This document shows positions 184 to 21,514 of a stretch of 21,514 nucleotides of DNA, in pieces. Numbering within the stretch: the stretch's first letter is position 1; each line of letters opens with the position of its first letter. The notes beneath the pieces are model-generated. The model was not told the DNA's origin, searched no databases, and saw only the letters and a program-made list of their open reading frames with translations. Source of the DNA: Candidatus Absconditabacterales bacterium (lineage in GTDB: Bacteria > Patescibacteriota > Gracilibacteria > Absconditabacterales > Absconditicoccaceae); assembly GCA_023228925.1 (NCBI GenBank), contig JALOAF010000017.1, positions 1-21,514 of the forward strand, given 5' to 3'. The position numbers and the translations under genes were made by a program.

Positions 184-477
184 TTATGCGTATCAATTCT
201 CTGAAGAATTGCTTACATTTTCAATCTCTCATCATATTGCATCTGCTATCTGTTCAACTTCTTTTTTATCAGCATTATTCTTTTCTGTGCTTTTATTGGG
301 ATCTTCTACATATTTTGTTATTCCCAAACTTTTTGCTATCCAATTAATTACTTCTTGTTTTTTTTCTTTCGGTTCTTGTTCTAGTATTTTTACTAATTCG
401 ACTGCTTTATTGTTTATACTATCAACATTACTGAACGATTCGATTTGATTTTTTTGATTAAGTGTGTTAATATTCAT
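184..477 (-). CDS. Small protein of unknown function, second gene of a two-gene unit
   Basis: The reading frame encodes 97 residues when UGA is read as glycine; two adjacent TGA codons (229-234) and one near the C-terminus (193-195) are crossed before a TAA stop. I do not recognise the family. The N-terminal half is predicted helical and charged, with an EQEPKEKKQEVINWIAKSLG stretch near residues 33-52. The last 35 or so residues are acidic and rich in Asn, Ser and Glu, so probably disordered. There is no signal peptide or membrane segment. The start lies 3 nt after the stop of the upstream gene (481-831), which suggests co-transcription and coupled translation from the promoter at 865-892. 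The leader has no Shine-Dalgarno sequence. A palindromic terminator follows at 137-164. Confidence 0.6.
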
Positions 478-480
478 TTT

Positions 481-831
481 TTAAAAATTAGTAGATAAAA
501 TTTGTTCTAACCACAATTCCGGATCTCATTCTTGTTGACGATCTAAAGCTTCTGCTTGATGAATTTTTTCTAATACCAAGAATAAGCTCTGGAGTTCATC
601 CAATCATTTTTGTAGATCCATTTGCTCGATTTTTTCCAAGCTTGACACCAATACTTTATAAATTCAAACCAATACCCTATCTGTATAATTTTTGCTACTT
701 ACAGATTTGATTAATTTTACAAATATCTCATCCAAAGTTTCAAATTTACTTAGCAAAGAAAGAAGTTTCTCTTTTTTTAATTGAGAGTTAAGTGCTTGAA
801 ATTCCTCTATTGCTTTGATATAAATAGACAT
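481..831 (-). CDS. Small helical protein of unknown function, first gene of a two-gene unit
   Basis: The frame gives 116 residues from ATG at 829-831 to TAA, crossing three TGA codons read as glycine. I do not recognise the family. It looks like an all-helical soluble protein: heptad-like Leu and Lys spacing occurs in the first 40 residues (SQLKKEKLLSLLSKFETL), and again further on (EKIEQMDLQKGLDELQSL). A GTG at 856-858 opens the same frame 9 codons earlier. However, the consensus promoter at 865-892 would start transcription at about 858, so the internal ATG is the better start. The downstream gene begins 3 nt after this stop. The pair could act together, but nothing in the sequence says how. 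Confidence 0.6.
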
Positions 832-864
832 TTGTATATTGAATATAAAGTTTGACACATATAA

Positions 865-892
865 ATTATAATCAAAAAAAAAATCCTGTCAA
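865..892 (-). promoter_or_regulatory. Consensus sigma-70-type promoter
   Basis: Read on the minus strand, TTGACA (887-892) is followed after 16 bp by TATAAT (865-870). Both boxes match the bacterial consensus exactly. The expected transcription start is near 858, about 27 nt before the ATG at 831. It drives the small two-gene unit and lies in the short gap after the MATE gene. Confidence 0.75.
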
Positions 893-914
893 ATTTTGAA
901 TGACTTTTTTTAAT

Positions 915-19600: not shown

Positions 19601-20432
19601 GAAGCTTAATTAAAGACATAAGCTTTTTTTTCTGTTCTACAGATTTTAATTTTAAGTATTGTTCTAGCCTAAGCTTTATTTCTTTTTTAACATCAATATT
19701 TTGCAATGTTTTTAAGACTCACTCTGGTCCAGAAACAAATTTTATTATATCAGAATATTTGTAGAAAACATTTCTATAATCACTTTCTAAGATTGTTTTT
19801 CCAAAATCTAAATCAGACACAATAGACTTTAGTCTGTTAAATTCCAAAGATAGCTTTTCTTTGTTTTCATTATATAGTTTATCAATTTCTTTTAATTTTT
19901 TCTTGTTTGTTCCACCCTCTTCTAATTCTTTTTTATAGAGATCTTCCAAGTCTTTCAACTTTTCGTCTAAAGTTTCTTGTAACTTTTTTGTTAATACTTT
20001 TTTTTGTTCTTCTGTAATTTTTTCAGGAATTACATACTTTACAAATGTCAAAATTCTATCTATTTCATTTGATGAAAGTTCTAATAAATTGTGAATTCCT
20101 CAAGATGGACTAGACTTATATCGAGCATGAACAACTGGAGAAGCTAGATCTATGTGTCACATTCTAGACCTTCTAACTCTAGATGTTGTAACTTCCACTC
20201 AACATCTTTCACACACTATTCATTTATATCTTACTCATTTATACTTTCCACAACTACATTCATAATTTTTTACAGGTCCAAAAATAGTTTCACAAAACAA
20301 TCAATGTTGTTTTGGTCTTCAGGTTCTGTAATTTACCGTATCTGGATTGTCAACAGCTCCGTTAGATCGCTTTGAAATATCTTCTACAGAAGCAAGTGTT
20401 ACAAGAATTCAATCAAATTTAGATTTTTGCAT
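16623..20432 (-). CDS. rpoC: DNA-directed RNA polymerase subunit beta'
   Basis: The 1269-residue catalytic subunit of RNA polymerase, complete. The N-terminal zinc site is C-S-C-G...C-E-R-C-G, followed by [20 protein letters not shown]. The lid/rudder region has the coiled coil starting near [14 protein letters not shown]. The Mg-binding signature NADFDGD is at residues 512-518, followed by QMAVHLPLS. The second zinc cluster and switch region read [18 protein letters not shown] and [20 protein letters not shown] with HHGGIAG. The C-terminus is [17 protein letters not shown] and TAA. TGA glycines are frequent. Compared with E. coli it lacks the large insertion and is closer in length to the shorter bacterial forms. 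It is 209 nt downstream of rpoB, an unusually wide gap for this pair. Confidence 0.98.
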
Positions 20433-20588
20433 TAGAAATAATTTAAACAAAAATAAATTTATATTAACTAAGATTATTTAATTGGTTTTAACTTGATGAG
20501 TTTTTTATGTTTCTTACAATGTTTGATTCATTATTATGGTCTAAATAAATGAAGTGATGATTTTATAACAATGAAGTTTTTTTATCAT

Positions 20589-20617
20589 AGAATAATATGT
20601 GTTTTGTTGACTGTAAA
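20589..20617 (-). promoter_or_regulatory. Possible promoter between rpoB and rpoC
   Basis: On the minus strand TTTACA (20612-20617), a 17-bp spacer and TATTCT (20589-20594). It lies in the 209-bp rpoB-rpoC gap, about 150 nt before the rpoC ATG. Such near-matches are not rare in AT-rich DNA. Confidence 0.3.
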
Positions 20618-20641
20618 CTAACTTAGGAATTTGTTATTGTT

Positions 20642-21514
20642 TTAACCATCTAATTCTCAGCTTTCTTCCATATCTTCTAATATTTTATCCATAATATCTC
20701 ACTTTTCTTCTGGAACAATTTCTTCTTTAGAATCAATTTCCTCATCATCAGTTACCACTGCTCACTCTTTCATTAGTGCTCAAAGTCCAAGCTCTTTAAT
20801 TTTACTGATTCTTTCTTTTGTGATTTCATCTAATTCATCTTTTGTCATAGCCTGAATGTTTTGTCATAATCACTTAAACAAATATGTAACTAAATTGAAG
20901 GACTCTGGCAATCATCATATATTTGGTTTTTGACCTCTTATAATAGACTCATACATTTTATTTCTTCAAATAACATCATCTGACTTTACAGTTAACATTT
21001 CTTGTAATGTATATACTGCTGAATAAGCCTCCAATGCTCGCACCTCCATCTCTCAAAACCTTTGTCATCATTGTCTTGATTTTCATCACAATGGTTGTTG
21101 AGTAATTAAAGAATATGGTCAAACTGATCTAGAGTGAATTTTATCTTCTACCATATGTACTAATTTCAGCAAATGCATATATCAAACAGTAACTTTATTG
21201 CTATATGGTTCTCAGGTTTGTCAATCATATAATTGAGTACTTATTTCGTCCTCTATTCAAAGCTCTGTTATTAGTTTATTAAATTCTTCTAATCCAAATC
21301 ATGAAAATGCTCCAACAGAAAATTTAATTCAATATTTTTTAGCAATATATCAAAGCTGAACCTCAAATAATTGTCATAAGTTCATACGAGATATTACTCA
21401 TAAAGGATTTAAAACCACATCTATCGGCTCTCCATCTTTTACATAAGGCATATCTTCTTCTGGCACAACAACAGCAATAATACCTTTATTCCCATGCTTT
21501 CCAGCTAGTTTGTC
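20642..21514 (-). CDS. rpoB: DNA-directed RNA polymerase subunit beta, C-terminal part
   Basis: The final 290 residues of RNA polymerase beta; the gene continues past the window edge. It begins in [20 protein letters not shown], followed by [20 protein letters not shown] and RMNLGQLFE, the active-site-proximal block conserved in all beta subunits. The clamp contact region reads [20 protein letters not shown]. After [20 protein letters not shown] comes an acidic tail ending ESGELDG and TAA. The glycines of NPLGV, NLGQ and FGGQRFGEM include TGA codons at invariant positions. Confidence 0.98.

What the first reader, a model, noticed from the sequence alone, without database searches (positions are those of the whole stretch)
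184..21514. UGA is a glycine codon throughout (table 25)
Seen: in-frame TGA occurs in most genes and lands on invariant glycines: KSGT of the PBP (8463-8465), GHHIGNH in the deacetylase, FGGQ in L27 (two adjacent TGA), NPLGV in RpoB, EGSPK in NusB. In the GH26-like gene PWG is CCT-TGG-TGA, so Trp (TGG) and Gly (TGA) sit side by side. All 18 visible gene ends are TAA or TAG. Known: this code marks Absconditabacteria and Gracilibacteria. L27 uses TGA for 7 of 11 glycines while L32 uses none, so usage varies strongly between genes.
Basis: partly seen in the sequence, partly recalled or inferred. Interest (0 to 1): 0.7.

Follow-up and report, generated by a model that had tools for sequence, protein, structure and literature searches.

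The report
UGA means glycine, CGA means tryptophan

Summary
Seventeen ORFs contain 239 in-frame TGA and no internal TAA or TAG. A Codetta-type test on six genes assigns TGA to Gly (147 columns, lnLR 188.9 over Ser). But 'table 25' is incomplete. CGA (20 codons) behaves as Trp, not Arg. At RpoC 22, RpoC 104 and RpoB 159, reference homologues have Trp in 102/103, 103/103 and 93/93 rows. The same test assigns CGA to Trp (8 columns, lnLR 11.9 over Phe). Most bacterial profile scores rise when CGA is read as Trp. In relatives, Arg and Trp alternate only at Trp columns; 35 Arg columns of RpoC hold 4147 Arg and 0 Trp. The closest named relatives are Candidatus Absconditabacterales, a group for which UGA=Gly plus CGA/CGG=Trp was published in 2021 (PMC8629427). 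So it is correct, known, and mislabelled. The decoding tRNAs and loss of RF2 could not be tested: no host or sister genome was reached. A lead: relatives appear to write Trp as CGR at 81% of Trp positions in the GH26 gene, against 9% in PBP and 15% in RpoC.

The parts
20642..21514 (-). RpoB C-terminal part: 24 TGA (Gly), CGA at 21038-21040 at an invariant Trp
   Evidence: (Trp in 93 of 93 rows)
16623..20432 (-). RpoC: 65 TGA (Gly), CGA at 20367-20369, 20121-20123, 18681-18683 (Trp)
   Evidence: at codon 584 (18681-18683) reference rows have mostly Gly (88 of 103) but clade relatives have W 75, R 22 of 120
12969..14426 (-). GH26-like glycosyl hydrolase: 11 TGA, 8 CGA, 5 TGG
6192..8678 (+). PBP2/FtsI-like protein: 27 TGA (KSGT Gly at 8463-8465), CGG at 6786-6788, CGA at 7518-7520
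   Evidence: start codon not verified
2448..4760 (-). Tex: 26 TGA, CGA at 2940-2942 (no clear evidence for Trp at that site)
915..2252 (-). MATE transporter: 22 TGA, CGA at 1659-1661 and 999-1001 (the latter aligns with Trp of solved MATE chains)
15207..15752 (-). NusB: 6 TGA of 6 Gly, CGA at 15498-15500 and 15333-15335 (no clear evidence for Trp at these sites)
16046..16513 (-). Ribosomal protein L27: 7 TGA of 11 Gly, including FGGQ as TGA-TGA
15783..16016 (-). Ribosomal protein L32: no TGA, 4 GGN
11569..12987 (-). Pyruvate kinase: 14 TGA of 20 Gly
10431..11171 (+). Polysaccharide deacetylase-like: 7 TGA, CGA at 11034-11036 (meaning at that site not tested)
10046..10411 (+). YbaB/EbfC: 3 TGA of 11 Gly
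8723..9604 (+). ORF of 293 aa, 9 TGA, no Pfam hit
5263..5874 (+). ORF of 203 aa, 6 TGA, no Pfam hit
14517..15149 (-). ORF with pacifastin-type match, 6 TGA, CGA at 14748-14750 (meaning at that site not tested)
481..858 (-). ORF of 125 aa, 3 TGA, no Pfam hit
184..477 (-). ORF of 97 aa, 3 TGA, no Pfam hit
5018..5089 (-). tRNA-Arg with anticodon GCG, expected to read CGU/CGC
11190..11276 (+). tRNA-Ser with anticodon GGA

Best explanation
The window is chromosomal DNA of an Absconditabacterales bacterium (Patescibacteria/CPR). Shown here: UGA is read as glycine and is the commonest glycine codon (239 of 405); CGA is read as tryptophan, and is about as frequent as UGG (20 CGA, 22 TGG); CGU is arginine and AGA the main arginine codon. 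Not every one of the 20 CGA sites is shown singly. Suggested: the single CGG is tryptophan too. Inferred from published work, not tested here: UGA is decoded by a tRNA-Gly with anticodon UCA and RF2 is absent, so RF1 terminates at UAA/UAG; CGA/CGG are decoded by tRNAs with anticodons UCG/CCG that carry tryptophan, while tRNA-Arg(GCG), present in the window, takes only CGU/CGC. A simple mutational argument of my own, untested, fits the counts: by single synonymous steps TGG reaches CGA only through CGG, because TGA is glycine, so an AT-biased genome at equilibrium should hold CGA and TGG in similar numbers and little CGG; observed 20 CGA, 22 TGG, 1 CGG.
For: TGA: 239 in frame; 50 of 52 RpoB/RpoC columns under TGA that are conserved at 80% or more are Gly; six-gene profile test gives Gly, n=147, lnLR 188.9 over Ser. 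CGA: Trp in 102/103, 103/103, 93/93 rows (three RpoC genomes stand in twice, 100 distinct rows); profile test gives Trp, n=8, lnLR 11.9 over Phe; of 5 RpoB/RpoC columns that are at least 90% Trp, the window has CGA in 3, TGG in 1, CTA in 1. Reading CGA as Trp raises RpoC TIGR02386 from 1274.3 to 1289.7 bits, RpoB TIGR02013 from 345.6 to 353.0, MATE NF007130 from 252.3 to 258.9, GH26 from 28.8 to 33.6. Relatives: RpoC columns with R+W of at least 90% and at least 6 rows of each are exactly 4, all Trp positions, while 35 Arg columns hold 4147 R and 0 W. Solved GH26 chains (2bv9 and others) have Trp at window GH26 positions 132, 135, 281, 290; solved MATE chains have Trp at MATE 418. Closest named relatives are Absconditabacterales. 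Published code: PMC8629427.
Against: RpoC codon 584 is CGA where reference rows have Gly (88 of 103), though clade relatives there have W 75 and R 22 of 120. In the profile test 4 of 8 CGA columns have consensus Trp (MATE 418, RpoC 22 and 104, RpoB 159); MATE 198, Tex 607 and both NusB columns have consensus Ile or Leu at low weight; the test is also weak for TGG itself (n=7, Trp 0.87). Solved MATE chains have Ile or Tyr at MATE 198. Reading CGA as Trp lowers Pfam MatE from 182.2 to 180.2 and five archaeal-type RNA polymerase models by 0.1-1.2 bits. PBP CGA 443 aligns mostly with Tyr (84 of 114; W 20, R 7). Two of 8 GH26 CGA columns are mixed in relatives (326: R 52, N 39, W 16, D 7, Y 4; 381: R 73, W 26, K 9, Q 7). 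CGG: one codon, relatives W 42, R 25, Q 24 of 114. The CGA sites in the deacetylase and the pacifastin-type ORF were not tested. No UCA or UCG tRNA of the host and no release factor gene was seen. The alignments were made with TGA read as Gly and CGA as Arg, not masked; those were masked.
Confidence: 0.95

Rival explanations
1. Plain table 25: UGA is Gly and CGA/CGG remain Arg; the CGA hits on Trp positions are chance or substitutions.
For: Table 25, or UGA=Gly alone, is what two papers on members of the clade describe (PMC13059738, PMC8080830: passages seen); RpoC 584, MATE 198, Tex and NusB columns do not by themselves show Trp.
Against: Three invariant Trp columns in RpoB/RpoC are CGA; in none of 35 Arg columns does any relative show W; most bacterial profile scores rise with Trp.
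Confidence: 0.04
2. UGA is Trp (table 4, as in Mycoplasma) rather than Gly.
For: Many database copies of relatives were translated that way: by the classes, 52 of 120 RpoC rows are code-4 type.
Against: Profile test gives Gly with lnLR 188.9 over the runner-up, Ser; 50 of 52 conserved columns are Gly.
Confidence: 0.005
3. CGA is an ambiguous codon read partly as Arg, partly as Trp.
For: Only some CGA columns have a strong consensus; peptide data in a BD1-5 bacterium gave, at highest stringency, 40 Gly peptides and single peptides for Trp, Ala, Lys and Asp at UGA, so some misreading may occur in the group (PMC4032931, passages seen).
Against: Of 37 RpoB/RpoC columns that are at least 90% Arg, the window has AGA, AGG or CGT in 27 and non-arginine codons in 10, never CGA.
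Confidence: 0.05

Closest known systems
Absconditabacteria (SR1) code of Shulgina and Eddy 2021 (PMC8629427; passages and section 11 read)
   Same: UGA=Gly, CGA=Trp, low GC, CGN box depressed, AGA main Arg codon, tRNA-Arg(GCG) present, CGG very rare
   Different: Nothing established as different; CGA (about 32 per 10,000 codons) is close to TGG (35) while CGG is 1.6, within the ranges that the paper gives for Pfam-aligned codons (CGA below 37, CGG below 7 in all but one species)
NCBI table 25 (SR1 and Gracilibacteria: UGA=Gly)
   Same: UGA=Gly
   Different: Table 25 keeps CGA/CGG as Arg; here CGA is Trp
BD1-5/SN-2 (Gracilibacteria) code, shown by proteomics (PMC4032931; passages seen)
   Same: UGA=Gly
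   Different: The passages seen concern UGA only; the window's closest named relatives are Absconditabacterales
Anaerococcus and Onthovivens CGG=Trp codes (PMC8629427, PMC13092985; passages seen)
   Same: A CGN arginine codon read as Trp; low GC
   Different: There CGA stays Arg (PMC13092985), and the papers list no UGA change for them in the passages seen

Membership tests
UGA=Gly codes (table 25 and the Absconditabacteria code) | UGA aligns with conserved glycine | tested here: met
UGA=Gly codes (table 25 and the Absconditabacteria code) | Genes end only in UAA or UAG | tested here: inconclusive
   10 TAA and 7 TAG of 17, but the ORFs were delimited by TAA/TAG, so the test is partly circular
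UGA=Gly codes (table 25 and the Absconditabacteria code) | tRNA-Gly with anticodon UCA | not tested
   none in the window (two tRNAs only); no host genome held
UGA=Gly codes (table 25 and the Absconditabacteria code) | RF2 (prfB) absent, RF1 present | not tested
   no host genome held
NCBI table 25 in the strict sense | CGA stays Arg | tested here: not met
Absconditabacteria code (UGA=Gly, CGA and CGG=Trp) | CGA aligns with conserved Trp | tested here: met
Absconditabacteria code (UGA=Gly, CGA and CGG=Trp) | CGG aligns with conserved Trp | tested here: inconclusive
   one codon only; relatives W 42, R 25, Q 24 of 114; of the 34 closest printed, W 24, R 8, H 1, Q 1
Absconditabacteria code (UGA=Gly, CGA and CGG=Trp) | tRNA(UCG)/(CCG) with Trp identity | not tested
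   not in the window; no host genome held
Absconditabacteria code (UGA=Gly, CGA and CGG=Trp) | tRNA-Arg(GCG) for CGU/CGC | tested here: met
   tRNA-Arg(GCG) at 5018-5089; A20 and A73 read by eye; CGT assigned to Arg, n=7. Absence of an ACG tRNA in the genome was not tested
Candidatus Absconditabacterales (taxon) | closest named proteins come from this order | tested here: met
   GH26 P0003 78%, PBP P0131 72%, RpoC P0245 82%; farther rows carry other labels too (Gracilibacteria, SR1, Peribacteria). No tree was built

The most novel reading that the evidence does not exclude
In this clade the choice between UGG and CGR for tryptophan is strongly gene-specific. In GH26-like genes of relatives about four Trp positions in five appear as Arg in databases (1045 R, 252 W; inferred CGR codons), against 32 of 338 in PBP and 70 of 471 in RpoC, also in six pairs picked by eye that share a longest-contig length and so probably lie on one contig (52 R/14 W against 2 R/17 W). 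The reassigned codon may then be under selection in specific genes (expression level, or making a secreted enzyme unreadable to standard-code cells) rather than spreading neutrally. My literature searches on this clade's codes were not worded for gene-specific use, so whether it is in print is open.
Probability: 0.4. Interest if true: 0.5.

Novelty: already known. Interest (0 to 1): 0.32.

Why it matters
Using table 25 on this window turns up to half of its tryptophans (21 of 43, if every CGR is Trp) into arginine. That hides motifs: database protein P0014, a GH26 relative, matches no solved structure at E up to 1 as deposited, but matches GH26 endoglucanase chains at 3e-05 once 11 R at Trp columns are read as W (no control substitution was run). 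Papers of 2021 and 2026 on members of the group describe UGA=Gly (the 2026 one as code 25); the terms CGA and tryptophan have no occurrence in either main text. The correction is practical, and gene-specific use of the reassigned codon would be a testable question about how codon reassignments spread.

Tried and rejected
Host genome: not held. In a draw of 379 genomes of the phylum of G001, 368 matched; the listed rows (a part, about 160) have at most one TGA inside, and the top ones are 44-47% identical. 48 of the 379, with odd or missing matches, were re-searched with RpoB: 36 matched, with at most one TGA inside. The rest of the unlisted genomes were not looked at singly. A second draw of 314, whose 20 listed handles repeat the first draw, gave no GH26 match at 1e-60. 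So RF2, tRNA-Gly(UCA) and tRNA(UCG) of the host lineage stayed untested. Scanning viral contigs for a Gly-type UCA tRNA gave one phage-like contig (L109); one Trp-type UCG tRNA pattern gave none. RpoC in viral contigs: the 80 kept of 187 are 25-33% identical. Strong gene-to-gene variation of TGA use: rejected as stated, only modest. RpoC 463, CTA where 96 of 103 reference rows have Trp, is Leu in 120 of 120 relatives: a clade substitution, not a code change. Trp count of RpoC says little: reference rows have 4-14 (median 9), the window 2 TGG plus 3 CGA.

Rows dropped before counts: GH26 P0002 (98% identical) left out of 120 rows; PBP P0122-P0127 (96-100% identical) left out of 120. In one search, of 108 loci, 103 gave a long enough RpoC and 93 RpoB; columns with more than 30% gaps were skipped; the loci are 80 named contigs plus 28 from genomes of the phylum without names, taken as standard-code, and three genomes stand in twice. 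In one search unique rows were MATE 25, Tex 11, PK 30, NusB 13, RpoC 100, RpoB 97; MATE rows include paralogues. The Trp-type columns were chosen by R+W of at least 90%, W at least 5%, no Gly and at most 30% gaps, so variable Trp positions are not counted (PBP keeps 3 columns only). R at Trp columns was taken as CGR without seeing the DNA of those relatives. One search's Fisher test used counts that I read off the strings printed; rows are related, so its p value is too small.
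Full report
Observation. Under table 25 the window reads as 17 ORFs, among them RpoB C-terminal part, RpoC, L27, L32, NusB, a GH26-like hydrolase, pyruvate kinase, a polysaccharide deacetylase, YbaB, a PBP, Tex and a MATE transporter (families), with tRNA-Arg(GCG) and tRNA-Ser(GGA). In frame there are 239 TGA in 6,267 codons; the other five frames of the same DNA hold 243-649 stops each. The sites it names are as described. GC is 0.23-0.31.

UGA is glycine. RpoB and RpoC were aligned with 93 and 103 homologues from 108 loci taken as standard-code: columns under TGA average 71% Gly, and of 52 columns conserved at 80% or more, 50 are Gly. 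A Codetta-type test with profiles of six genes, built without the window and with the tested codon masked (TGA, CGA and CGG masked always), gives Gly for TGA with n=147 and lnLR 188.9 over Ser. Of the 58 other codons with aligned columns, TGA and CGA apart, 54 get their table-11 residue, some weakly (TGG n=7, posterior 0.87; ATC 0.53), and four do not (CTC, CTG, GGC, TCG; n=7, 5, 3, 2; posterior at most 0.55).

CGA occurs 20 times and CGG once. Three CGA codons fall on near-invariant tryptophans: RpoC 22 (Trp in 102 of 103), RpoC 104 (103 of 103), RpoB 159 (93 of 93). Of the five RpoB/RpoC columns that are at least 90% Trp, the window has CGA in three, TGG in one, CTA in one; of 37 columns that are at least 90% Arg, none is CGA. 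The profile test gives Trp for CGA (n=8, lnLR 11.9 over Phe), with consensus Trp in 4 of the 8 columns and Ile or Leu at low weight in the other 4; CGT and AGA give Arg. Bacterial profiles score higher with CGA as Trp: RpoC TIGR02386 1274.3 to 1289.7 bits, RpoB TIGR02013 345.6 to 353.0, MATE NF007130 252.3 to 258.9, Rpb1 domain 1 193.3 to 202.6, GH26 28.8 to 33.6, Rpb2 domain 7 65.2 to 70.9. Against: Pfam MatE falls from 182.2 to 180.2 and five archaeal-type polymerase models fall by 0.1-1.2 bits. Solved endoglucanase H (GH26) chains have Trp at GH26 positions 132, 135, 281 and 290; 132 and 290 are CGA in the window, 135 and 281 TGG. Solved MATE chains have Trp at MATE 418 (CGA) but Ile or Tyr at MATE 198 (CGA).

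Relatives show the same by their mistranslation. Among 120 RpoC relatives, Arg and Trp replace each other (R+W at least 90%, at least 6 rows of each) at 4 columns (22, 104, 738, 1218), all Trp positions; at 35 Arg columns there are 4147 Arg and no Trp. RpoC 584, where reference rows have Gly (88 of 103), has W 75 and R 22 among 120 clade relatives. In GH26 relatives 11 of 13 columns where the window has TGG or CGA hold almost only R and W; columns 326 and 381 are mixed; the four strongly conserved AGA columns hold R only. PBP 443 (CGA) is Tyr 84, W 20, R 7 of 114. The single CGG (PBP 199) has W 42, R 25, Q 24 of 114, and W 24, R 8, H 1, Q 1 among the 34 closest printed; some W may be TGA read by table 4: suggestive, not proven. 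Reading 11 R of database protein P0014 as W changes its solved-structure matches from none at E up to 1 to ten, the best at 3e-05, nine of them endoglucanase H chains or fusions and one GH26; no control substitution was run.

Who it is. The closest named proteins are from Candidatus Absconditabacterales: GH26 78%, PBP 72%, RpoC 82%; farther rows are labelled Gracilibacteria, SR1 or Peribacteria as well. NCBI places this order in Candidatus Absconditibacteriota. No tree was built.

Literature. Shulgina and Eddy (PMC8629427; passages, section 11 read) report UGA=Gly and CGA/CGG=Trp in Absconditabacteria, with CGA below 37 per 10,000 and CGG below 7 in all but one species, tRNA-Arg(GCG) for CGU/CGC, UCG/CCG tRNAs for CGA/CGG, and tRNAs consistent with the reassignment. 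PMC13092985 (passages) repeats that Absconditabacterales decode CGG and CGA as Trp. PMC4032931 (passages) validated UGA=Gly by proteomics in a BD1-5 bacterium. Papers on Strigamonas (PMC13059738) and Vampirococcus (PMC8080830) describe UGA=Gly; the terms CGA and tryptophan do not occur in either main text. The window's values, about 32 CGA, 35 TGG and 1.6 CGG per 10,000 codons, lie within the published ranges.

How it works. Shown: the meanings of UGA and CGA at the level of conserved columns. Inferred from the papers: UCA-anticodon tRNA-Gly, loss of RF2, UCG/CCG tRNAs with Trp identity. The window supports one link, tRNA-Arg(GCG) with A20 and A73 by eye. The rest could not be tested, because no host genome is held and I found no recoding genome in what was shown of the draws. 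My own argument, not tested: because TGA is Gly, TGG reaches CGA by synonymous steps only through CGG, and AT bias then favours both ends of that path, which fits 20 CGA, 1 CGG, 22 TGG.

A lead. At Trp-type columns the share of R is 1045 of 1297 in GH26 (11 columns, 119 rows), 32 of 338 in PBP (3 columns, 114 rows), 70 of 471 in RpoC (4 columns, 120 rows). The query used for GH26 carried R at its CGA sites, but the R share is as high at the five columns where the window has TGG (472 of 590), so ranking bias does not explain it. Six pairs, picked by eye for equal longest-contig length, show 52 R/14 W in GH26 against 2 R/17 W in PBP or RpoC (Fisher p 9e-08). Equal length is only circumstantial evidence for one contig, the rows are not independent, and codons were not seen. 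In the window itself the contrast is absent or weak (GH26 8 CGA, 5 TGG; RpoC 3 and 2; PBP 1 CGA, 1 CGG, 4 TGG).

Verdict. Correct and well supported, but known; the label should be the Absconditabacteria code, not plain table 25.

Noticed in passing
L109 7794-7867 (-), and ORFs at 1457-6922: A viral contig of 29% GC carries a tRNA with anticodon UCA and a Gly-type acceptor (GCGGG...CCCGCT). TGA is frequent in ORFs that look like portal (12), terminase (10) and a collagen-like G-X-Y protein (24), but absent from three ORFs with 18-24 GGN each; one CGA sits at the Arg of a terminase-like RLRGT motif, so CGA looks like Arg there (gene names by eye). It may be a Gracilibacteria phage or a late-gene recoding phage.
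   Followed up: partly
14517-15149 (-): A protein with an N-terminal hydrophobic stretch, three similar Cys-rich repeats (DLTxCLxYFDGC, by eye) and a Pfam pacifastin-inhibitor match (1.1e-10), a family that I recall from insects.
   Followed up: no
9605-10045: A gap of about 440 bases without an ORF of 60 aa or more in an otherwise dense window.
   Followed up: no
RpoC codon 463 (CTA): Leu in the window and in 120 of 120 relatives where 96 of 103 reference rows have Trp: a clade-specific substitution in a conserved part of RpoC.
   Followed up: partly
GH26 relatives P0003-P0121: Database copies are translated by different tables (TGA columns split between G and W), and Trp columns mostly read R, so many copies of this gene family in public data probably carry wrong residues.
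   Followed up: partly
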